Shown: in pieces, positions 5,030 to 59,349 of the stretch | Layout of the letters: each line of letters starts with the position of its first letter | Position numbering within the stretch: the stretch's first letter is position 1 | Source of the DNA: Arthonia radiata | Lineage: Eukaryota > Ascomycota > Arthoniomycetes > Arthoniales > Arthoniaceae | Reading direction: 5' to 3' | Assembly (NCBI GenBank): GCA_002989075.1 | Contig: PSQN01000013.1 | Span: 716,379-780,378 of the forward strand | DNA: 64,000 nucleotides | The notes under the pieces: generated by a model | Seen by the model: the letters and a program-made list of their open reading frames with translations, nothing else | What the model was told of the DNA's origin: nothing | Databases searched by the model: none | Translations under genes and position numbers: made by a program

Positions 5030-5611
5030 TTAATTAGTTATAGCAGCACTAACACTCTAATCTACTATCTAGTATACTTTATTGGTATCTAGGTTATCTA
5101 TAAACGAACTAGCTTACTATATTAGTAGCCTACTACCTAACTCTGGAAACAGATCGTTACAAAAATCTATACTTAGGCTACTTAGTATATCTATAATATT
5201 ACTACTAAACATAGCTGCTAGCTATTCTTCCTCGAACAATATATTATTCTAATTTATTTTGTTCTACGCCTAAATACGCAATCTTTCGAGCTTCTTCTCT
5301 AAATCTACTATTACCGCTTTAATAGCTTCGCGCTACCTTTTCGCCGTACAAACGACTTCCTTCTCTTCCGCTAGACGCTTGCGTTGCCCCTAGAGGGCAT
5401 CCGACACCTATAAGTACTAAGAACGAATACTCTGAGCTAAAAATAAGTTAAATTAATACGAATAATAAACGTAAAATAGAAACTAACTATCCTTTAACGA
5501 TAGACGAACGTTATACGACTTCTTATCGCAAGTATACATAAAATACAATGCCTTTCTAGACTTTAGAATACACTTCTTACTTAAGTAAGAGTAACAGAAA
5601 CACGGAAGCAT
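5030..5611 (-). pseudogene. Antisense Zn2Cys6 ORF relic of G2 (type A tail)
   Basis: Reading frame opposite to gag-pol, between the chromodomain and the 3' LTR. The start ATG survives (5609-5611, 177 bp from the LTR) and the frame runs 194 codons to TAA at 5030-5032, broken only by RIP-type TAG/TAA. The N-terminus begins MLPCFCY. Cys1 (5600-5602) and Cys3 (5570-5572) are TGT; the other cluster positions are TAC/TAT where other copies keep Cys. Spacing is C-x2-C-x6-C-x8-C-x2-C-x6-C, the fungal Zn(II)2Cys6 pattern, with Lys-Lys before Cys3 as is usual in that family. A Lys/Arg/Leu-rich stretch (putative coiled coil) and a conserved C-terminus (AAMFSSNI..., LSSLSIDF) follow. It may be a DNA-binding regulator; no function is shown. 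It is one frame here, whereas G7 and G8 lack one base. Confidence 0.7.
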
Positions 5612-8497: not shown

Positions 8498-9077
8498 ATA
8501 TCTCTATATTTCTATTACTCTTACTTAGATAAAAAGTATATTCTAAAGTTTAGAAAGGTATTTTACTTTATATATATTTACGATAAGAAGTTATATAACG
8601 TTTATCCGTTATTAGAGAATAGTTAGTTTCTATTTTTATATTTATTTAGCTAGTTTTAACTTATTTTTAGCTTAAAGTATCTATTCTTAGTACCTCTAAG
8701 TATTAAACGCTCTTTAAAAGCAGTATAAGCGTTTAATAGAAGAAAAGAAAGTTATTTATATAGTAAAACGATAGCGTAAAGCTATTAAAGCAGCAGTTAT
8801 TAATTTAAAGAAGAAGCTTAAAAAATTGTATATTTAGACGCAGAATAAAATTAATTAGAACAATATATTGTTTAAGAAAAGATAGCTAGTAGCTATATTT
8901 AGTAGTAATATTGTAGATATACTAAGTAGCCTAAGTATAAATTTTTATAATAATTTCTATTTAAAGTTAGATAGTAGACCTCTAATATAGTAAGCTAGTT
9001 TATTTATAAATAACCTAGATACCAGCGGGGCGTACTAGATAGTAGATTAGAACGTTTATACTGTTACAACTAATTAA
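8498..9077 (+). pseudogene. Antisense Zn2Cys6 ORF relic of G4 (type A tail)
   Basis: On the plus strand because G4 is minus. The Met codon is ATA (8498-8500); the end aligns with the TAA at 9075-9077. All N-terminal Cys positions that I can place are mutated, mostly to TAT, for example CTA TAT TTC TAT after the start. The Lys-rich central part and the AAxFSSNI-like C-terminal block (GTAGCTATATTTAGTAGTAA near 8888) are recognisable. Length is about 580 nt against 582 in the intact-length copies, so small indels are present. Upstream 8321-8497 is the non-coding tail next to the LTR. Confidence 0.5.
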
Positions 9078-12724: not shown

Positions 12725-13263
12725 ATACCTTCTTGTTCTAAATACGTATCGACTAAGGAACAGTATATAATTTAGTTTAGAAAGGCAATATATTTAGTAT
12801 GTACTTAAAATAAGAAGAGTTATAATTTATAAATATTTATAGTAAATAGTATATCTTACTTTTATTCTTTCTGTAGTATCTTAAACTAATTTAGTTGTAG
12901 TGCGTTTAATTTATTCTTAATATTCCTCTTAGTTAGCTGCTCTTTAGCCTACAAAGCGCTAATTACGTATATTAAAGGCTTAGATAGTAGTATTAGTCGT
13001 AGCTATATAGTATAACCGATTTAAGGTTTAGAAGTTAAAAAAGAAGGTTAAGAAGACTTATACGCGGACAGTAGCGAAGCTAGCTTAAAATAAATTGTTA
13101 AAGTAAGAGGAGTTAACTACGTCGATAGCTAGCAGCAATATATTTAAATGCTCGAGCGGGTTATCTATTAACTTTTAAAGTAACTCTTATTCGAAGTTGA
13201 GCGGTAGTTCTATAACGTAGTAAGATAGTTTATTTAAGAGTAACCTAGATATTAATAAGACGC
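12725..13263 (+). pseudogene. Antisense Zn2Cys6 ORF relic of G5 (type B tail), 5' part
   Basis: Opposite strand to G5 gag-pol. Start codon ATA (12725-12727), then I-P-S-C. Cys1 is TGT (12734-12736) and Cys5 is TGT (12800-12802); this is the copy that preserves Cys5. The distance Cys1 to Cys5 is 22 codons, as the C-x2-C-x6-C-x8-C-x2-C spacing requires. A basic Lys/Leu-rich region and a conserved SSNIFK block follow. G6 splits the C-terminus at 13263; the rest is at 41229-41272. Confidence 0.65.
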
Positions 13264-19259: not shown

Positions 19260-19840
19260 TTAATTGGTCGTAGTAGCACTAATACTCTAATTTACTATTT
19301 AGTATGCTTTACTAATACTTAGGTTATTTATAAACAAACTAGCTTACTATGTTAGTAGCCTACTATCTAACTCTAGAAACAAATTGTTATAAAAATCTAT
19401 ACTTAAGCTACTTAGTATATCTACGATATTACTACTAAACATAGCTACTAGCTATTCTTCTTTAAACAATATATTATTCTAATTTATTTTGTTCTACGCC
19501 TAGATACGCAACCTTTTAAGCTTCTTCTTTAAATCTATAATTGCCGCTTTAATAACTTTACGCTATCTTTTCGCCGCACGAACGACTTTCTTTTCTTCCG
19601 CTAAACGCTTATGTTACTTCTAAAGGGCATTTAATACTTATAAGTACTAAAAATAGATACTTTAAGCTAAAATAAGTTAAACTTATACTAAAAATAGACG
19701 TAAGATAGAAACTAACTATTCTTTAACGACGAACGAACGTTATACGACTTCTTATTACGAGTATACATAAAATACGATACCTTTCTAGACTTTAGAATAT
19801 ACTTCTTATCTAAGTAAGCGTAGCAGAAACACAGAGGTAT
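19260..19840 (-). pseudogene. Antisense Zn2Cys6 ORF relic of G7 (type A tail)
   Basis: Start ATA (19838-19840), Cys1 TGT (19829-19831). The span is 581 nt, one less than in G2: an A is missing in an A-run between the zinc cluster and the Lys-rich part, so the two halves are in different frames. The Lys/Arg-rich stretch (AEEKKVVRAAKR) and the VAMFSSNIVDILSSLSIDF C-terminal block are very clear. Segment 19841-20016 up to the LTR is tail without a recognised gene and ends in a polypurine tract. Confidence 0.68.
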
Positions 19841-31046: not shown

Positions 31047-31627
31047 TTAATTAGTCGTAGCAGCACTAATACTCTAATTTACTATTTAGTATACTTTATC
31101 GATACCTAGGTTATTTATAAACAAACTAGCCTACTATATTAGTAGCCTACTATCTAACTCTAGGAACAAATCGTTACAAAAATTTATACTTAAGTTACTC
31201 GGTATATCTACAATATTACTACTAGACATAGCTGCCAGTTATTCTTCTTTAAACAATATATTATTCTAATTTATTTTGTTCTGCGTCTAAATATATAATC
31301 TTTTAAGCTTCTTCTTTAAATCTATAACCGCTACTTTAATAACTTTGCGCTGTCTTTTTGCCGTACAAACGACTTCCTTCTCTTTCGCTAAACGCTTGCG
31401 TTGCTTCTAAAGGGCATTCGATACCTATAAGTACTAAGAACGGATACTCTGAGCTAAAATAAGTTAGACTTATATTAAAAATAGACGTAAGATAGAAACT
31501 AACTATTCTTTAACGATAAACGAACGTTACACAACTTCTTGTTACGAGTATATATAAAACACGATACCTTTCTAGACTTTAGAACATACTTCTTATCTAG
31601 ATAAGCGTAGTAGAAACACAAAGGTAT
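31047..31627 (-). pseudogene. Antisense Zn2Cys6 ORF relic of G8 (type A tail)
   Basis: Start ATA (31625-31627), Cys1 TGT (31616-31618). Span 581 nt with the same one-base loss as G7, in GAGCTAAAATAAG against the extra A of G2. The Lys-rich centre and C-terminal block are conserved. Segment 31628-31803 is tail up to the LTR. Confidence 0.66.
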
Positions 31628-32855: not shown

Positions 32856-33327
32856 TATTACGAGTACTAGCTTCAGACGGCCTAGCGTACGTTTAAGCGT
32901 CAACTACTACTAATTATCTTAGCCCTACCAGTATTATTTCCGACTAAGCCTATAAACCCGCCGTAGGTATTATCGAACAAGACGGCTATAAGAGCCTATA
33001 TTCCCTATAAACCCGATATAGGTATTGTCGGGTTGATAAATATAAAGGAACTCTCCTTATATACCTTAGACTATATAGTTAGACTAATAGCCGACCTTAG
33101 AATAGACTTTAGTCTATTAACTTAATATCTAAATATAAGTTCCTTAACTCTATTTAGGTAACGTACTTTATCTTCTATCTATCTTAATCAAGCTTCTCTT
33201 ACCTTCTATAATCTATCTCGCCTCTCCTACCTTTTAGTCTCTAGTATACAAGATACTTACTACTAAGGTCGATAAGCACATAAGATAAGTAAGCCTTAGT
33301 TCGGTTCTCCCAGCGACTAGCGTTATA
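32856..33327 (+). repeat. LTR type B, 5' LTR of G9
   Basis: 472 bp. U3 has two direct repeats, CCTATAAACCCG...TAGGTATT at about 32949-32976 and 33004-33031. The TATA-like CTATATAG near 33072 precedes AGTCTATTAA (33111-33120), complementary to the site after the LTR. Confidence 0.92.
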
Positions 33328-33329
33328 CT

Positions 33330-33339
33330 TTAATAGACT
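33330..33339 (+). other. Candidate self-priming primer binding site of G9
   Basis: TTAATAGACT two bases after the LTR; exact reverse complement of 33111-33120. Confidence 0.55.
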
Positions 33340-33369
33340 TGCTACGAAAGTAGAGAAAGCAGATTGATT

Positions 33370-34290
33370 ATGTCTACTACTTCGGTACCCAATAGCCGTA
33401 ACGCTGCGAATAGGCTAGCCAGCAAAATAACCGCTATAGATAAGATATTGAACGTTAACACTAAGATAGATAAAAGCTTCTCTAATAAATATTCCGAACT
33501 TACTTTATTTCTAATACGCTTAGCTGTATATTTTAAGACTTATAAGGATTAGTTTCTGAATAACAGCACTATAGTTTTATTTGCCGTATCTTATATAGAT
33601 AGCGAGGCATACAAATAGTTTAACTTCTATCTTAAAGACTAGTTCTATAAGGTACCTAACAAACGACAAGAAGAGACTAACGAGCTCTTCTCTAGCTTTA
33701 CTGCGTTTTAGTAAAAGCTCCGACAGGTATACAGAGATACAGATTCCGAACGTACTACTGTACGCAAACTTAAGATACTCCGTTAGATAGAACCAGCCAG
33801 CCGATACGCCGCTAAGTTTCTATAGTATACTAACTAAACCGAATAGAATAAAGGACCCCTAGTCGATACCTCTTATAAAGGCTTAAAGGACTATATTAAG
33901 GAAATTATCTATATTCGTAGAGAAAAGTTTACCGAACTAGAGAAGTTTATAGAACGAGCCAAGAAAATCGACGACAGCAACTTTAAACGACAGTTAGAAA
34001 AGAAAGGAACTAACTTAGATAAGTTCGCCTAGATTCGGAGTAAGTACAACTTACAACAAGACCGAGGTAATCTAATAGAATTAGACTTTATAAAGCTCTA
34101 TAAAAAACTAAATAACTAGAAACAAGAACACAGAATAAAGAACAAGCTATACTTATATTACGGAAAACCAGGGTATTAAGTTAAAGAATGCTGTTTTAAG
34201 AAACAATAGTTTAACAGTACTAGTAGAAACGGGTACAACGATCGACCTTAGAAACCCTGTTTTCTACGATAACATTTTAATATAACTACC
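33370..34290 (+). pseudogene. gag relic of G9 (gag type 2)
   Basis: The ATG at 33370 is intact and the frame stays open to 33552 (MSTTSVPNSRNAANRLAS... to YFKTYKD). The stop there is TAG in place of an expected Trp. The frame then continues, through RIP stops, to a CCHC knuckle at about 34148-34195 (ancestral C-x2-C-x4-H-x4-C). There the first two Cys are TAC, His is TAT and the last Cys is TGC. The type 2 middle (FNFYLKDxFYKVPNKRQEE) is clear. This is the best surviving gag start in the window and sets the start chosen for the other copies. A TTG six bases upstream is in frame, but ATG is the better start because all other copies align there. Confidence 0.85.
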
Positions 34291-37200
34291 TAGACATAGG
34301 AGAACACCTACTAGGTTACTTCTAACAAAAAGTACAATAAATAGAACTTATTTAACTTACACAAGAACTAAGATACAGACATTAAGTTATAAGAGGAAAT
34401 AAAGAAACGACAAATAAAACAGGAACAATAAAACCTATAGAACTGGAACAACATTAACCGCACTATTCTAAGGTAGTAGATATAAGATACCGTTACACCC
34501 TATAAAACACTATCTTAGACCGCGTACTACGATAATAATTGTACGATTTATAAATCTAATAAATTAGAGTTAGAATAATGGCCGAAGAAACTAACATCTC
34601 CGAAACAAGGTTCGATACAAAAACTAGGCCTTATCCGAGGACGACCTAGGTCGCCTTACCTAGAAACCTAAGGAGAATCTAAGGAAGAACAGATCGTAGA
34701 GACTAAGTAAGATAGCAGCTACAATGCGTTATAGACAAGACAACAACTCAAAGACAAAAATATAAATTCTAATGGTACGGAATTCTTGCTCGAGAACAAT
34801 ACTAATTAGAAAGAATAAACCTTAATTCGTTGGGAAGGAATAATATAGAGACTTTGTTAGTTGGCCTTCTATAATAGAAAGTTGAGCGCTAATAGAGAAA
34901 TTAACAATATTCTGGAATATATTTACTTACGCCTACGACGACTAGTAAACTACCTTATTAAGGGTCTAGAATTGCGTAGCTAGTACCAATATCTTTAATT
35001 AACAATGTACAACCTATAGATACAATAGATTTTAACTAGCAATAATTGTATAATTAAAGTAGAGATTGTAAATAATAAACTAGACGTTATAATAAGAGCA
35101 GTACTAAAACACTTTATATAGAAATTCTTATAGCAAATCAACCGACAATAGGTTTTAGTATCTAGATTACTCTAGAACATATACAATTAACAGAGAAAAG
35201 ACTAGGCCGACTGCTTTAAGGGCAGTAGTACCGGCCTATCTAACGGTTAAACCCTTTAGAAGTCTAGCTCTATATAAGCTTAGCTTCCTACAAAATATAT
35301 CTACACACTTAAGCAACAATAAACTATAGAAACATTAAAATTATAATTAATTTAGGCGCAACAGGTAACTTTATCTTAATACGCTGCGTTAAGGAGTACT
35401 AGATATAAATAAAAAAAGAAATTACCCTACGTACTGTTTAGATTTTAAGGGGCAGAGGGAAGAGTTAACTACAAGACTTTACCAATAGATATAACAATTA
35501 GAAACTATTAGAAAGAAATTACTTATAATATTATAAATATTAACTAGCACTACGCTATACTAAGTATACTCTAGTTGCAACAATATAATCTAAAAGTAAA
35601 TTAGAGAACTAAGAAGCTCCTCTTTACTAGGTATAAGTACTCTAGATAAGAGTCGTTCTACAGAATAAATACCCTATAAGCTATTTTTAATAGTAAAGAT
35701 AAGAAGCGCGATAAAGAACTTATACGGGTTAGCACTACTATACTTCAATATTTAAACATTCTACGAGAGAAGTCTAACGCAGTATCTCGTCTATAGCTAG
35801 CTATACGTAAGTATAAACAAGAGACAACTGTACATTAACGATTCTATACGACAACAAGTACTCAGTTAATTACTAAGATACTTAAGAAATACGATCAATT
35901 CCGATACCTATTTAAAGAAGCTAAGCCAAACTCAGCTCTCCTAGAACACAAACCGTAGGATTATACAATACCTTTATAGAAGAGTAAAACGCCAATATTC
36001 GGTCTAATATACTCTCTATTAGAAGCAGAAAATTAAGCACTCCGCGATTATCTTAACGAGAACCTTAAGAAAGGATTTATCCGAAAGTCAACATTACTAG
36101 CCGAATACCCGATACTCTTTATACCAAAGAAGAATAGTAAACTACGACTCTACGTAAATTATAGACAACTAAACAGAGTAACTATTAAAAACTAATATTC
36201 TTTACTACGCAGCGACGAAATAATAGATCGATTGTATAACGTACAATAGTTTACTAAGTTTAACCTACAAGGAGCATACAATCTAATCCGTATAAAGAAG
36301 GATAAAGAATAGAAAACGGCCTTCTACACTAGACACAGACTTTTTGAGTATTGCGTTATACTCTTTAGACTAATAAACGTACCAGTATTATTTTAGAAAT
36401 TAATTAACAACATACTCGGCGATTATCTAGATATATTTATAACTGCTTATCTAGACAATATTCTAGTATATAGCCGTATACTAGAAGAATATAAGAAACA
36501 TATTAAAAAGGTATTAGAAAGATTGACGCGTATCGATTTACAAATCGATATCGAGAAAACCTAGTTTTATTAATAATCCGTCGAATTTCTTAGATTTATA
36601 ATTATCGAGCACGGTCTCTAAATAAAAGATTCGAAGATCTAATTTGTCTTAACCTAGCCTACACTAAAGAATATAAAATAACTGCAACAGTTTCTTAGTT
36701 TTGCTAATTACTACAGGCGGTAGATATTTAACTTTAGCCGAATTATAGCACCGCTGTCTCAACAGATAAAACAATCGATAGAATTCTTCTAAACGTAAAA
36801 AGAACAATTAGTATTTAAAGAGCTTAAGAAAGCTTTTAAGATCGAACCTATACTAGCGATATTTAACCTTAACCTACCGATTATTATAGAAACAGACGCG
36901 TTAGACTATACAATTGGAGTATATATAAGTTAAAACAATAAGGAAAGAAAGCTTAGACCAGTAGCTTTCTACTTAAGAAAGATATTACCTATAAAACAGA
37001 ACTATAATATTTACGACAAAGAGCTCTTAGCTATTATAGCAGCATTTAAGATATAGCGAGCTTACCTAGAAGGAGCAAACTATACAATTATAGTATATAC
37101 AGACTATAAAAACCTAACTTACTTTATAACAACAAAGAAGCTTAATTACAGACAAGTTAGATAGTTAAAAACTATAGCTTTATATAACTTTATTATTACC

Positions 37201-38764
37201 TATAAGAAAGGTTCTAAGAACAATAGAGCCGACGTACTAAGCCGACGTTTAGACTACCTTAATAACAAGAAACACGTCGAGCACACAATATTTTAAGAAC
37301 AGAATAATAAGATTAGATACAATTAATTGGCTATAATAACCGAGTTTGTTATTAAACTAGATAGCCGAATTCTAAACATTGTAAACGATCCTAAGACTTA
37401 CTAGAAAAACAAGAAACGACACCTAGAATTAACTAAGAACAATAGAGACTATTACGAATTCTAAGGCAAAATCTACGTCCCAAGGAATCTAATCTAAAAC
37501 ATTATTAGTAACTTCTACGATAACCCAACTAAAGAACACAAAGGTATCGACAATACTATAGAAAAGATTATAAGAACCTATTATATCTCAAGAATCCGAC
37601 ACTACGTTAAGAATTATATCCGAGAATACGATATATACGTACGAACTAAGTACCCAAGGCATTTACTATACGGTAAACTACAACTACTAGAGATACCCGA
37701 GAGACTATAGTATACGGTCTTACTAGACTTTATAACCAAACTACCAATATCTAAGGATCTACTTATAGAAGTAGCTTACAACGCTATTCTCGTTATATAC
37801 AATAAACTAATAAAATACGCATCCTTTGTACCTTACAAGGAAGCTAGCAACTTAGAATAACTAGCGTATACCTTTCTACAGATTATCTTAGCCAACTATA
37901 GTTAACCGCAAAGAATCGTCTTAAACAGAGACTAGAAATTTGTCTTACGATTCTAGACATCCCTAATGCAACAACTAGAGACTAAATAAAAAATATTAAT
38001 ATTATTCTACCCGCAAACAGACGGACAAACAGAACGAACGAATTAAACGCTAGAATAGTATCTTTAGACGTATATTAACTACTAATAGAACAACTAGATA
38101 TAATTGCTACTAGTAGCGCAAGTAGCGCATAACAACATTAAAAACAATATAACTAAGATAACTCCGTTCTATACCTTATATAGCTATTACCCTCTTTAGA
38201 GAAGACAACTATATAATACTACCGAAAACGAGACAGCTATACAAATAGCTATAAGCATAAAAACTCTACACCAGCAGTTAAAGTCTGACAGCAAGTTTAT
38301 TAACGAACAAACAAGACAATAGTATAACAAATTAAAAACTACTCTAAATATAAGCATAAAAGAGAGGAAAAGAGCTTACTTACTTATAAGAAACTTAAAA
38401 ACTATTAGACTAAGTAAGAAACTTAACTATACTAAGACAAGACCGTTTAAAATCTTATAGCAATTAGAATCTATAATATTTAAACTAGAACTCTTAAAGA
38501 TAATAAGAATATACTCTATATTCTATATAGCGCTATTAAAACTAGTCTACTTTCAAGAAGCAGAACGATCTAACTCCGAAATCCTTTCTAACAATTAAGA
38601 ACCCGAGTACGAGGTCGAAACGATTCGAGCTTATAGGCAATACCGAGGCAAACAACAGTATCTCGTAAAATAGAAAGGATATTCTAAATATAAAAATTAA
38701 TGGGAACCAGAATAAAACCTAATTAACTGTAAAGCTACTATTCGACAGTATTAGAACTAGAATA
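34291..38764 (+). pseudogene. pol relic of G9
   Basis: Protease about 35345-35395, reading IINLGATGNFI: the GAT and GNF parts survive while the catalytic Asp is Asn. RT about 36100-36520 with box YLDN at 36448-36459. RNase H block about 36888-36923 (TDALDYTIG). Integrase: HHCC finger about 37530-37640 with CxxC as YxxY; first catalytic Asp near 37722; second Asp region about 37917-37945, now Asn-Arg-Asp; Glu in QTDGQTER near 38015-38035. Chromodomain about 38604-38730, keeping one TGG (38701-38703) in the NxWEPE motif. No large deletions. Confidence 0.88.
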
Positions 38765-39346
38765 TTAGTCGGTCGTAGCAGCATTAATATTCTAATTTAC
38801 TATCTAATGTATCTCGCTAGCACTCAGATTATCTTTAAATAAACTAGCCTACTACGTTATAGAAACGCTATTTAACACCGAATAGAGGTTACTCTAAAAG
38901 TTAATAGATAACCCACTTAAACATTTAAATATATTACTACTAGCTATCAACGTAGTAAGCTTCTCTTGCTTCAATAACTTATTCTAAGCTAACTTTGCTG
39001 CTGTCCGCGTACAAGTCTTTTTAACCTTCTCTTTTAACTTCTAGACCTTAGATTAGTTACGCTATATAGCTACAACGAACGCTGCTATCTAAGCCTTTAA
39101 CGAACGTAATTGGCGCTTTACGCTCTAGAGGGCAGCCGACTAAGAGGAATATTGAGAATAAACCGAACGCGCTGCAACTAAGTTAGTTTTAGTTACTACA
39201 AGAAGACAGCAACGAGGTATACTATCTACCATTGATACTCGTAAATTATAACTCTTTTCGTTTTAAGTATATATCAAACACGTCGCCTTCTTAGACTGAA
39301 CTACACACCTTTTCTTAGTCGATATATATCTAAAACAAGAAGGCAT
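38765..39346 (-). pseudogene. Antisense Zn2Cys6 ORF of G9 (type B tail), reference copy
   Basis: Start ATG intact (39344-39346), 187 bp from the 3' LTR; 194 codons to TAA (38765-38767), broken only by RIP-type stops. The N-terminus begins MPSCFRY. Cys1 (39335-39337), Cys3 (39305-39307) and Cys4 (39278-39280) are TGT; positions 2, 5 and 6 are TAT here but TGC/TGT in other copies. The resulting C-x2-C-x6-C-x8-C-x2-C-x6-C is the Zn(II)2Cys6 binuclear cluster of fungal DNA-binding proteins. The middle is basic with Leu/Val spacing (putative coiled coil). The C-terminus (IASSNIFK, LSGLSINF, QASLFKDNLS) matches that of type A. Small regulator or nucleic-acid-binding accessory protein of the element: inference. 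Transcription would have to start near the 3' LTR, antisense to gag-pol. Confidence 0.75.
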
Positions 39347-39532
39347 TTTAATACCGTAGGCTTTAATTAATAGGTATTGGCTATACTTTTTATTAAGACC
39401 CGTAGTAACGGACTTTATACGAGGTATAGCGACTTACAGATTAGTTACGAAAGAAGGAACGAAACGTAACTTATACGTATTTAAAAAGCTAAGGGTTAAT
39501 TAAGAACAATTTAACTAGAAGAGAGGGAATTG

Positions 39533-40004
39533 TATTACGAGTACTAGCTCTAAACGGCCTAGCGTACGTTTAAGCGTTAACTACTACTAATTATCTTAGC
39601 TCTACCAGCATTATTCCCGACTAAGCCTATAAACCCGCCGTAGGCATTATTAAACAAGACGGCTATAAGAGCCTATATTCCTTATAAACTCAATATAAGT
39701 ATTGTTGAGTTAGTAAATATAAAGAAACTCTCTCTATATACCTTAGACTATATAGTTAGACTAATGGCCGATCTTAGAATAGACTTTAGTTTATTAACTT
39801 AATATCTAAATATAAGTTTCTTAACTCTATTTAGATAACATACTTTATCTTCTGTCTATTTTAGTTAAGTCTCTCTTATCTTCTATAATCTATCTCGCCT
39901 TTCCTACCTTTTAGTCTCTAGTATACAAGATACCTACTACCAAGGTCGACAAGCATACAAGGCAAGTGAGCCTTAGTTCGGTTCTCCTAGCGACCGGCGT
40001 TATA
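39533..40004 (+). repeat. LTR type B, 3' LTR of G9
   Basis: 472 bp; a purine tract (AGAAGAGAGGGAA) precedes it. Differences from the 5' LTR are nearly all C/T or G/A changes, as RIP would cause. Confidence 0.92.
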
Positions 40005-40009
40005 AACGT

Positions 40010-40566
40010 TCTAATTTACTATCTAATGCGCTTCGCTAGTATTTAAGTTATCTTTAAACGAACCGGTCTACTATATTATAGATCTACTATCTAACCTCGA
40101 GTAGGAGTTACTCTAGAAATTAATAGATAACTTATTAAAGCATTTAAATACATTGCTACTAGCTATTAACACGGCTAACTTCTTTTACTTTAACAATTTA
40201 TTTTAAGCTAGCTTTGCTGCTGTCTACGTATAAGTCTTCTTAACCTTCTCTTTTAACTTTTAAATCTTAAATTAGTTATAGTATATAGCTGCAACTAATA
40301 CCGCTATTTAAGCCTTTAATTTATATAATTAGCGCTTTGCTTGCTAAAGAGCAGCTAATCAAGAGGAATATTAAGAATAAACCGAACGTACTATAACTAA
40401 GTTAATTTTAAGTACTATAGAAAAAATAATAATAAGGCGTACTATCTACTATTAATACTTATAAATTATAACTCTTTTTAGTCTAAGTACATATTAAATA
40501 CATTGTCTTTCTAAACTAGACTATATATCTTTTCTTAGTCGATACGCATCTAAAACAAGAGGGTAT
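40010..40566 (-). pseudogene. Antisense Zn2Cys6 ORF relic of G6 (type B tail)
   Basis: Main part of the ORF; its last codons are at 32830-32855 on the other side of G9. Start ATA (40564-40566), then I-P-S-C-F-R-C. Cys1 TGT (40555-40557) and Cys2 TGC (40546-40548) are intact; this is the copy that proves Cys2. Cys3 reads TAT. The rest of the tail (40567-40752) is non-coding up to the LTR. Confidence 0.65.
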
Positions 40567-48673: not shown

Positions 48674-49619
48674 ATATCTACTATTTTAGTATTTAATAGC
48701 TATAACGCTGTAAATAGACTAGCTAATAGGATAATTAGTATAAATAAGATATTAAATATTAATATTAAGATAAAAAAGAGCTTCTTAAATAAATGTTTTA
48801 AAGTTACTTTATTTTTAATATACCTAGCTATATACTTTAAAACTTATAAAAATTAATTTCTAAATAATATAACTATAGTTCTATTTACTACCTTTTATAT
48901 AGATAAAGATACTTATAAGTAGATTAAGTATTATTTTAACAACTTTTTATTTACTTCGATAAAGAGTAGACGTAAGGATACTAATAAGTTCTTTGCTAGC
49001 TTTATCTTCTTCTAAAAAAAACTCTAAAAAATCTTTAGGTAAACCGACGCTAGGCGCATCGCTATTAAAAAGCTTTAGAATCTTAAGTAAATAGAACTAG
49101 TAAGTAGGTATACTACTAAATTTATATAGTATGCTAATTAAATAGAATAAAACAAGGAATTCTTTATTAAGATCTTTTATAAAGAACTTAAAGACTATAT
49201 TAAGAAAATAACCTATATCTATAAAGAGAAGTTTAATAATCTTAATAGCTTTATATAATAAGTAAAGAAAATTAACGATAGTAACTTTAAAAAATAGATA
49301 GAAAAGAAGAGTAACTCTATTAATAGATTCTATAAAATAAAGAATCGAATAAATTTATAATAAAATTAAGACAATCTAATAGAGCTAAATTTTATAAAGC
49401 TTCGAAAGAAACTAAATAATTAGAAAAGAAATATAAAATAAAGAATAAGCTAAACTTATATTACAAGAAGCTAGAGCATTAAGTTAAGAAATACTGTTCT
49501 AAGAAATAATAGTTTAATAGTACTAAACAAAGCGAATACAACAATAATCGACCTTAGAAACCCCGCTCGCTACAACAATAGTTTAATATAACCTGTCTAG
49601 TTACTATAGCTAGGAAACA
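48674..49619 (+). pseudogene. gag relic of G10 (gag type 1)
   Basis: Start ATA at 48674-48676. Type 1 middle (KYYFNNFLFTSIKSR), knuckle about 49451-49502 with His as CAT. It ends in the first bases of a long-type linker (GTTACTATAGCTAGGAAACAA) before the deletion junction. Confidence 0.75.
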
Positions 49620-49826
49620 ACTTAATATCTAAATATAAGTTTCTTAACTATATTTAGATAACGTACTTTACCTTCTATTTACTTAGTTAAGCCCCTCTTA
49701 CCCTTTATAATCTATTTTATCTCTTCTATCTTTTAGTTTTTAGCATACAAGATATCTACTACTAAGATTAATAAGCATATAAGGTAAGTAAGCCTTAGTT
49801 TAGTTCTCTTAGCAACCGGCGTTATA
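49620..49826 (+). repeat. LTR fragment, 3' LTR remnant of G10
   Basis: Only the R-U5 half (about 207 bp, from CTTAATATCTAAATATAAG to GGCGTTATA) remains; U3 type can only be inferred from the 5' LTR. Confidence 0.85.
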
Positions 49827-49831
49827 GCTTA

Positions 49832-51377
49832 ACTTTCTGTTGTAGAAGGCTATCTAGTAAAGTCTCTATATTATTCCTTTCTAACGAATTAGAGTTTATT
49901 CTTTCTAATTAGTAGTATTATCCTTGAAAAAGGATTCTATACTATTAGAATCCCTTTCTTTGTCCTTAAGACGTTATCTTACCTATAACGTATTATAGTT
50001 ACTATCTTATTTAGCTTCTACGGTTTATTCTTCCTTAGATTTCTCTTAGGTCTCTAGATAAGATAATCTAGATCATTCTTAGGTAAGATCTAGTTTCTAT
50101 ATTAAATCTTGTTTTAAAGATATTAGTTTCTTTAGCTACTATCCTAAACCTAGTTTATTAGATTTATAGGTCGTATAGTTGTTATCGTAGTACGCGGTCT
50201 AGAATAGTATTTTATATAGTATAACGATACTTTATATCTAATGCCTCGGGAGAGTACAGTCGATGTTATTTTACTCCTATAGATTCTATTGTTCTTATTT
50301 TATTTATTGTTCCTTTATTTCTTTCTATAACTTATTATCGGTATCCTAATTTATATATAAATCGAATAAGTTTAGCCTAATATACTACTTATTGGAAGTA
50401 TTCTAGTAGGTATCTTTTTGTTTATTAGACAGGTTTTTGTTTTTCTATGTTTAAGTAGTTATATTAAACTATTGTTGTAGAGAGCAGAGCTTCTATAATC
50501 GATTATTATTGTACCCGTCTTATTCAGTACTATTAAACTATTATTTCTTAGAACAGTACTTCTTTACTTAGTGTCCTAGTTTACCGCAATATAAGTATAG
50601 CTTATTCTTTATTCTATTTTCTTGTTTCTAATTATTTAGTTTCCCTTAAAGTCTTATAAAATATAATTCTATTAGGTTACCTTAGTTCTATTGTAAGTTA
50701 TACTTACTCTAAGTCTAAATAAACTTACTTAAGTTAGTTTTCTTCTTCTTTAATTGTCGTTTAAAGTTACTGTTATTAATTTTCTTAGCTTGTTCTATAA
50801 AATTTTTAAGTTTAGTAAACTTTTCTCTATAAATATAGATAATTTTCTTGATATAGTTCTTTAAGTCTTTATAAAAGGCGTTAACTAAGGGTTCTTCGTT
50901 CTATTTAGTTTAGTTAGTATATTATAGAAACTTAGCAGCGTAATAGCTAGCTAGTTCTATTTAGTAGAGTATTTTAAGCTTATATACAGTCGTACGTTTA
51001 GAGTCAGTATTTCTATATATTTATTAAAGCTTTTATTAAAATACAGTAAAGCTAGAGAAGAGTTTATCTGTCTCTTTTTATTGTTTATTAGACGCCTTAT
51101 AGAGGTAGTCTTTAAAATAAAAGTTAAACTATTTATATATCTTACTATTTATATAGAATATAGTAAATAAAACTATAGTACTGTTATTTAGAAATTAGCC
51201 CTTATAAGTCTTAAAATATATAGCTAAGCGTATTAGAAATAAAGTAAGTTTAGAAAGTTTATTTAAGAAGCTCTCATCTATCTTAGTATTAATATTTAAT
51301 ATCTTATTTATAGCAGCTATCTTAATAGCTAGTCTGTCTACAGTATTATAGCTATTTAGTACTAAAGTAGTAAATAT
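49832..51377 (-). pseudogene. gag and linker relic of G4 (gag type 2, short linker)
   Basis: Resumes after the G10 TSD. 49832-50420 covers the start of pol and a short linker (near 50340-50450). The gag knuckle, reversed, is near 50540-50610. The type 2 middle (reverse of YKAxNKQxKET) is at about 51061-51110. Start ATA at 51375-51377. Self-priming site AGTCTATTAA (plus reading) at 51408-51417, two bases before the LTR. G4 thus pairs LTR A with gag type 2. Confidence 0.75.
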
Positions 51378-58771: not shown

Positions 58772-59349
58772 TTAATCGATTATAATAGTATTAACGTTCT
58801 AATCTACTACTTAGTGCGTTCCGCCGGTACTTAGGTTATCTATAAGCAAACCAGTCTACTATATTAGTAGTCTACTACCTAACTTTAGATATAAATTATT
58901 ATAAAAATCTATACTTAAACTACTTAGTATATCTACAATATTACTATTAAATATAGCCGCTAGCTATTCTTCTTTAAATAATATATTATTTTAATCTATT
59001 TTATTCTACGTCTAAACGCGCAACTTTTTAAGCTCCTTCTTTAAATTAATAACCGCCGTTTTAGTAGCTTCACGCTACCTTTTTGCTATATAAATAACTT
59101 TCTTTTTTTCTATTAAACGCTTATACTGCCCCTAAAGGGCGTTTAATACTTATAAGTACTAAGAACGGATACTCTAAGCTAAATAAGTTAGAACTAGTAA
59201 AACGAACGTTAGAGTACAAACTAACTATTCTTTAACGATAAACAAACGTTATACAACTTCTTATTGTAAATATACATAAAGCATAATACCTTTCTAAACT
59301 TTAAAACGTATTTTTTATCTAAATAAGAGCAATAAGAATATAGAGTTAT
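58772..59349 (-). pseudogene. Antisense Zn2Cys6 ORF relic of G11 (type A tail)
   Basis: Start codon reads ATA (59347-59349) and the end aligns with TAA at 58772-58774. Length about 578 nt, so small indels are present. Most cluster Cys codons are TAT. The Lys-rich centre and the SSNI/LS.L block near 58900-58990 remain visible. 59350-59525 is tail up to the LTR. Confidence 0.5.

What the first reader, a model, noticed from the sequence alone, without database searches (positions are those of the whole stretch)
38765..39346. Antisense Zn2Cys6 zinc-cluster gene carried by a chromovirus
Seen: opposite to gag-pol, between chromodomain and 3' LTR, there is a 194-codon frame starting MPSC. Cluster spacing is exactly C-x2-C-x6-C-x8-C-x2-C-x6-C, with Lys-Lys before Cys3, followed by a basic putative coiled coil. 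Each Cys is intact in at least one copy: Cys1 (39335), Cys3 (39305) and Cys4 (39278) here; Cys2 in G6 (40546); Cys5 in G5 (12800); Cys6 in G1 (379). Known: this spacing defines the fungal Zn(II)2Cys6 DNA-binding domain. Inferred: the retrotransposon carried, or captured, a transcription-factor-like antisense gene, perhaps to control its own LTR or a silencing response. I know of no standard Ty3/gypsy gene of this kind.
Basis: partly seen in the sequence, partly recalled or inferred. Interest (0 to 1): 0.9.

Follow-up and report, generated by a model that had tools for sequence, protein, structure and literature searches.

The report
Spliced antisense gene in fungal retrotransposons
A large family of decayed jumping genes in a fungal genome carries, on the strand opposite its own replication genes, an extra intron-containing gene for a small protein with a fungal-type cysteine cluster and a long helix, which may be a self-regulator.

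Summary
In detail: frame and C-x2-C-x6-C-x8-C-x2-C-x6-C spacing are there and are not chance. In 168 aligned rows from this genome (102 type A, 66 type B; 166 distinct copies) the six positions read Cys or Tyr in 101 of 102 A and 62 of 64 scorable B rows, as RIP would leave them. One natural copy is open for 193 codons with all six Cys. In B it varies, 47-54 nt in rows with a GT donor, yet exon 1 is 124 nt in 63 of 66 and exon 2 407 nt in 66 of 66. Between A and B, protein similarity exceeds a permutation null most in the predicted frame (z 6.1 and 7.3; next best 4.1). An in-frame segment of 27 codons lies upstream. Pfam Zn_clus stays below its cut-off (18.5 vs 21 bits), so I say Zn2Cys6-like. 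Antisense genes in this place are a known kind (plant aORF-3R; brtn of fungal Boty elements); homology to brtn was not testable. Function, probably self-regulation, is inferred.

The parts
39223..39427 (-). Exon 1 of the antisense gene (type A copy): upstream in-frame segment of 27 codons (39347-39427) plus 124 nt from MPSC to the donor site
   Evidence: 124 nt from ATG to donor in 102 of 102 type A rows; upstream segment follows a stop at codon -30 in 100 of 102
39248..39337 (-). Zn2Cys6-like cysteine cluster, codons 4-33 (three of the six positions read Cys in this copy, three Tyr)
   Evidence: type B exon 1 matches Pfam Zn_clus at 18.5 bits, cut-off 21
39172..39222 (-). Predicted intron, 51 nt, GTATAC...CTAAC...GCAG
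   Evidence: GT donor in 97 of 102 A and 65 of 66 B rows, AG acceptor in 102 of 102 and 66 of 66
38765..39171 (-). Exon 2, 407 nt including stop: helical (probable coiled-coil) stretch, then a conserved C-terminal part
   Evidence: 407 nt in 96 of 102 A and 66 of 66 B rows; A versus B similarity in this frame z 7.3
38600..38760 (+). End of pol with chromodomain, tail to tail with the antisense gene
   Evidence: Read by eye; the homologous pol end in L088 matches Pfam Chromo, E 9.7e-15
32856..33327 (+). 5' LTR of the host element (472 nt)
   Evidence: Direct repeat 90.3% identical to 39533-40004; AACGT on both outer sides
39533..40004 (+). 3' LTR of the host element; 186 nt lie between it and the MPSC codon
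1..477 (-). Type A copy cut by the window edge
12725..13237 (+). Type A copy, exon 2 aberrant
40009..40566 (-). Type A copy, exon 2 shortened
5030..5611 (-). Type B copy (intron 51 nt)
8498..9077 (+). Type B copy (intron 49 nt)
19260..19840 (-). Type B copy (intron 50 nt)
31047..31627 (-). Type B copy (intron 50 nt)
58772..59349 (-). Type B copy (intron 47 nt)

Best explanation
This is an accessory gene of a fungal chromovirus (Ty3/gypsy) family, encoded on the strand opposite gag-pol between the chromodomain and the 3' LTR, tail to tail with pol. It makes a protein of about 203 residues from two exons: a short basic N-terminus, a Zn2Cys6-like six-cysteine cluster, a linker cut by a GT-AG intron of about 51 nt, a proline-free helix that is probably a dimerising coiled coil, and a conserved C-terminus. 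Shown: anatomy, conservation in two diverged types, protein-level constraint, RIP decay. [quoted passage not shown] the intron survives because the transposing RNA is the sense strand, from which an antisense intron cannot be removed. Inferred and less certain: the protein binds DNA as a dimer in the nucleus and regulates the element, most likely transcription from its own LTR, as HBZ does in HTLV-1.
For: Six positions read only Cys or Tyr in 101 of 102 A and 62 of 64 B rows; 13 of 102 A and 1 of 64 B rows keep all six Cys. A natural copy is open over 193 codons, while the other five frames of that stretch have 4-16 stops each. Intron: GT donor in 97 of 102 A and 65 of 66 B, AG acceptor in all; in B its length varies while exons keep 124 nt (63 of 66) and 407 nt (66 of 66), and 31 of 66 lengths are not a multiple of three; 14 gap events in 51 nt of intron against 6 in 531 nt of exon in B; shared transversions in 15 of 51 intron columns against 28 of 531 exon columns in B, Fisher p 4e-7. 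A versus B: predicted frame z 6.1 (exon 1) and 7.3 (exon 2), reached by 0 of 3000 permutations. Zn_clus is the top Pfam match of type B exon 1, E 0.0022. Chromodomain pol beside it. Own-genome searches list 152 and 150 matches, overlapping and capped.
Against: Zn_clus is below its curated cut-off (18.5 bits for B, 12.8 for A, against 21); for A exon 1 the top match is another sub-threshold family, DUF5651, and the A frame read through shows no Zn_clus at all. No relative in three protein-database searches. No RNA, splice read or binding data. In A the intron is 51 nt, a multiple of three, in 99 of 102 rows and shows 1 gap event against 13 in exons (from few aberrant rows), so A alone does not argue for splicing. 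Shared transversions: intron excess not significant in A (p 0.18); codon-position bias not significant in A (9, 6, 11; p 0.48), and in B the singletons are biased too (14, 22, 35), so they are no clean neutral control. The flanks have as few gaps as the exons. The branch-like word tested (YTRAY) is weak in AT-rich DNA. In one search one pol-strand frame also exceeds the null in exon 2 (z 4.1), and the permutation ignores uneven conservation along the gene. No stop-free type B copy among those translated.
Confidence: 0.78

Rival explanations
1. The region acts as antisense RNA (for example as a source of small RNAs that restrain the element), and the protein is secondary or absent.
For: Antisense transcripts of retroelements may act through dsRNA; this is put forward in PMC7264820 (parts 1 and 2 of 3 read).
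Against: Protein-level constraint is strongest in one frame, continued across an intron of changing length; conserved Cys positions.
Confidence: 0.1
2. The protein is an accessory factor of the replication cycle rather than a transcription regulator: for example a nucleic-acid-binding or nuclear-import partner of Gag or integrase, or an inhibitor of host silencing or of RIP.
For: A small basic cysteine cluster with a helix would serve this as well; the accessory protein GENE23 of plant Grande is nuclear with unknown role (PMC7264820).
Against: The Zn2Cys6 spacing followed by a helix resembles a DNA-binding plus dimerisation layout; there is no evidence on partners either way.
Confidence: 0.35
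3. A host Zn2Cys6 transcription-factor gene was captured recently and rides along without a role for the element.
For: The cluster is of a fungal type and the gene has a short intron of the kind usual in fungi (established knowledge).
Against: Present at the same place in two types at about 41% identity and under constraint; transduced genes are described as usually in sense and in one or a few copies (PMC7264820). Compared by eye, the only Zn_clus site that lies within a kilobase of a match or 44 is the type B copy in L088; those lists are capped.
Confidence: 0.04
4. The frame is a by-chance opening shaped by RIP or base composition.
For: The window copy has 13 internal stops, and all 40 copies first translated have 10-20.
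Against: Twenty less-mutated copies have 0-7 stops and more Cys; 0 of 200,000 shuffles give the pattern; constraint across A and B.
Confidence: 0.01

Closest known systems
brtn, antisense gene of Boty-like retrotransposons of Botrytis cinerea (Zhao et al. 2011, Virology; paper not held, known here from passages of PMC4227169, PMC8365987 and PMC5987419)
   Same: Fungal gypsy-type element with a CHROMO domain and an additional antisense gene. One Monilinia transcript is reported similar to both truncated Pol and BRTN, from which I infer that the two lie side by side. Conceivably the same gene family.
   Different: Homology could not be tested: no brtn sequence was available. None of the passages seen mentions a cysteine cluster or an intron in it.
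[quoted passage not shown]
   Same: Position, orientation, presence in most copies, conservation; GENE23 is nuclear and has its own promoter, per that review.
   Different: The review reports no clear similarity to other proteins, apart from an SMC domain in PvRetro13 and a transposase 28 domain in Retand; no cysteine cluster. No sequence comparison was made here.
HBZ of HTLV-1 (PMC3185765, abstract and passages)
   Same: Antisense, spliced, transcribed from the 3' LTR, DNA-binding-type domain with a dimerisation helix; lowers sense transcription.
   Different: bZIP instead of a cysteine cluster; a retrovirus of people; a parallel at best, not kin.
Fungal Zn(II)2Cys6 transcription factors (Pfam PF00172)
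   Same: Cys spacing, basic residues, downstream helix.
   Different: Below the Pfam cut-off; a small protein carried by a mobile element.

Membership tests
Antisense accessory gene (aORF-3R) of LTR retrotransposons | Between pol and 3' LTR, antisense to gag-pol | tested here: met
   Pol end with chromodomain at 38600-38760, gene 38765-39427 (-), 3' LTR from 39533
Antisense accessory gene (aORF-3R) of LTR retrotransposons | Present in most copies with conservation | tested here: inconclusive
   Conserved and present in many copies (152 and 150 listed matches; nine in the window), but the share of all elements that carry it was not measured
Antisense accessory gene (aORF-3R) of LTR retrotransposons | Antisense transcript | not testable with these tools
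   No RNA data
brtn of Boty-like elements | Sequence homology to BRTN | not testable with these tools
   Zhao et al. 2011 not held; no brtn sequence at hand
brtn of Boty-like elements | Antisense gene in a fungal chromodomain Ty3/gypsy element | tested here: met
Fungal Zn2Cys6 (PF00172) | C-x2-C-x6-C-x(5-12)-C-x2-C-x(6-8)-C spacing (recalled) | tested here: met
   Natural copies of A and B keep it
Fungal Zn2Cys6 (PF00172) | Pfam curated score cut-off | tested here: not met
   18.5 bits (B) and 12.8 bits (A) against 21
Fungal Zn2Cys6 (PF00172) | Zinc and DNA binding | not testable with these tools
   Needs a bench assay
Ty3/gypsy chromovirus (host element) | Pol ending in a chromodomain; LTRs with target duplication | tested here: met
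   PF00385 E 9.7e-15 and Tf2-1 SH3 E 2.5e-14 in L088; 472 nt LTRs flanked by AACGT in the window

The most novel reading that the evidence does not exclude
Fungal chromoviruses carry a spliced, antisense-coded Zn2Cys6 DNA-binding dimer that represses or tunes its own LTR: a fungal counterpart of HTLV-1 HBZ built from a different DNA-binding domain, and old enough to have diverged into at least two types in one genome.
Probability: 0.35. Interest if true: 0.85.

Novelty: new variant of a known kind. Interest (0 to 1): 0.62.

Why it matters
Antisense genes of LTR retrotransposons are a known class whose functions are described as undetermined (PMC7264820). Here one has a recognisable layout, cysteine cluster plus helix, and an antisense intron, so its role can be tested directly: does it bind its own LTR? 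It also shows a way to see antisense coding in heavily RIP-mutated genomes: intron length changes while exon lengths stay fixed. If it is the brtn family, it would supply a domain and a mechanism for a gene whose citations, as far as seen here, mention neither.

Tried and rejected
Protein-database searches with a seven-copy alignment, with part of one damaged copy and with the natural open copy found nothing; I do not read this as absence, since fungal coverage there is unknown. I recall abundant small fungal hypothetical proteins with this same cysteine spacing followed by a coiled coil; this is recall, from no call, and was not tested. PDB sequence searches gave weak matches only (none of the cluster type; TRIM21 first, a CBF3 subunit at E 2.1 and LEU3 at E 9.2 further down). 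Shared versus singleton transversions as a selection test was not significant in A and had an unclean control in B. Structure prediction was not run: the tool names the sources it accepts, and loci taken out of the own genome are not among them. No coiled-coil program was run. The host was not identified. Recent host capture and chance were considered and rejected (see rivals). Literature: ten searches were answered with a count; judged by titles and abstract starts, none listed a paper on a Zn2Cys6 or intron-bearing antisense retrotransposon gene. Lists 39, 67, 74 and 77 showed 20 of 40, 20 of 29, 20 of 2,740 and 10 of 30 papers, and subscription papers, Zhao et al. 2011 among them, are not held.

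Full report
Observation. The frame at 38765-39346 (-) reads as described. The window is strongly RIP-like (TG 0.26, CA 0.39, TA 1.39 of expectation). The host element runs from 32856 to 40004 with 472 nt LTRs, 90.3% identical, flanked by AACGT on both sides. The window lies in a held genome of 33.5 Mb in 16 contigs, unnamed.

Copies. A DNA search listed 40 copies. The 40 translated first (39 fetched plus the window's) have 10-20 stops each, counting the terminal one, and the six positions read only TGT, TAT or, rarely, TAC, with 0-5 Cys per copy. A protein search listed 151 matches, one of them without a stop. Twenty less-mutated copies were read: 0-7 stops and 3-6 Cys, seven of the twenty with all six. 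The open copy, in locus L048, gives 193 residues with all six Cys. Its other two gene-strand frames have 7 and 16 stops, the pol-strand frames 4, 8 and 4. A search with this protein listed 152 matches.

A second type. One match at 41% identity (L068) led to a further set of copies, type B (150 matches listed, some of them type A). Many B matches covered only the second half. In the eight of these that I read, the cluster half and the helix half are in different frames. Five further tails in the window carry type B at the same place relative to pol.

Intron. The frame shifts lie between one GT and one AG. In 168 aligned rows (102 A, 66 B; two rows are second readings of window copies), the stretch from ATG to donor is 124 nt in 102 of 102 A and 63 of 66 B; exon 2 is 407 nt in 96 of 102 A and 66 of 66 B. 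The six A exceptions are one copy cut by the window edge, two other window copies and three rows picked because truncated. The intron is 51 nt in 99 and 52 nt in 3 A rows; in B it is 47-54 nt in the 65 rows with a GT donor (57 in one truncated row), and 31 of 66 lengths are not a multiple of three. Donor GT: 97 of 102 and 65 of 66. Acceptor AG: 102 of 102 and 66 of 66. A YTRAY word lies in the last 22 nt before the acceptor in all rows, but this word is weak evidence in AT-rich DNA. In B the intron holds 14 gap events in 51 nt against 6 in 531 nt of exon and 1 in each flank of about 50 nt; the flanks are thus as quiet as the exons, so it is the intron that stands out. In A there is 1 event in the intron, 13 in exon 2 (from the six exceptional rows), 1 and 3 in the flanks, so the argument rests on B. 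Shared transversions in B: 15 of 51 intron columns, 28 of 531 exon columns (Fisher p 4e-7; misalignment in a gapped intron may add to this); in A 5 of 51 and 26 of 531 (p 0.18). That an antisense intron persists in a retroelement fits transposition through the sense RNA; this is inference.

Constraint. Comparing one lightly mutated copy of each type (L048, L088) exon by exon without gaps, similarity in the predicted frame exceeds a null that permutes substitutions among sites with the same base: exon 1 z 6.1, exon 2 z 7.3, 0 of 3000 each. The other ten frame tests have z from -0.4 to 4.1; the highest is a pol-strand frame in exon 2 (also 0 of 3000). The permutation ignores clustering of conserved sites. 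Amino-acid identity is 61% in exon 1 and 45% in exon 2. Transversions by codon position: 9, 3, 14 in exon 1 and 31, 29, 37 in exon 2. Within types, position bias of shared transversions is 9, 6, 11 in A (p 0.48) and 8, 4, 16 in B (p 0.018), but B singletons are biased as well.

Cysteines. Six positions all Cys or Tyr: 101 of 102 A, 62 of 64 B rows with letters at all six; all six Cys: 13 and 1. TGT to TAT is the change expected where CpA on the other strand is hit by RIP (established knowledge of RIP). Residue shuffles give the pattern 0 of 200,000.

Start. It begins at a codon that reads Met or, as RIP would give, Ile in 100 of 102 A and 57 of 59 B rows. It is open in some A copies and interrupted in most. 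The likely protein is therefore about 203 residues, with the cluster near, not at, the N-terminus; an upstream ORF is the alternative.

Domain. Pfam: type B exon 1 (L088) Zn_clus E 0.0022, 18.5 bits, cut-off 21; type A exon 1 Zn_clus E 0.13, 12.8 bits, behind DUF5651 at 14.0 bits; the A frame read through shows no Zn_clus. The genome's Zn_clus scan had already flagged the L088 site weakly (C9:1939336-1939401, E 0.067; same model, so no independent evidence). I therefore say Zn2Cys6-like and do not file it as a PF00172 member. Exon 2 of the open A copy has a stretch of some 70 residues without Pro or Gly (read), taken as a probable coiled coil.

Surroundings. Pol in L088 ends in a chromodomain (PF00385, E 9.7e-15) and lies tail to tail with the gene, four bases apart in that copy. 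The 3' LTR begins 186 nt beyond the MPSC codon in the window.

Known relatives. [quoted passage not shown] brtn appears in PMC4227169 (gag-pol with CHROMO domain and brtn), PMC8365987 (BcGypsy1) and PMC5987419 (a Monilinia transcript similar to truncated Pol and BRTN); of these I saw passages only. Zhao et al. 2011 is not held. HBZ is taken from abstract and passages of PMC3185765. No listing seen shows a cysteine cluster or intron for such a gene (titles and abstract starts, several lists cut). So the kind is known, and the cluster, the intron and the conservation over two types are what is added here.

Mechanism. Shown: anatomy, decay, constraint. Inferred: leftward transcription from the 3' LTR side and splicing (likely); nuclear DNA-binding dimer (about even); feedback on the LTR (about 0.35-0.4). 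The main rival is a replication accessory factor.

Noticed in passing
39347-39427 (-) and homologous places in other copies: Conserved in-frame upstream segment (27 codons) in both types, interrupted in most type A copies; either the true N-terminus or an upstream ORF.
   Followed up: partly
window 1-64000: Much of the window is made of nested, RIP-mutated Ty3/gypsy copies in both orientations, with no ORF of 120 aa or more and no tRNA gene.
   Followed up: no
L048, L088: Pol ends within a few bases of the antisense stop: a gap of four bases in L088 and, read by eye, a small overlap in L048, so each transcript would end inside or next to the other gene.
   Followed up: partly
49619-49832: A piece of about 214 nt that matches the LTR ends of many elements in the window, standing at the edge of other repeats; possibly a truncated LTR.
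   Followed up: no
L012 and L013: Two copies on different contigs with the same first 60 residues and identical scores and stop counts, perhaps a recent duplication of a larger segment.
   Followed up: no
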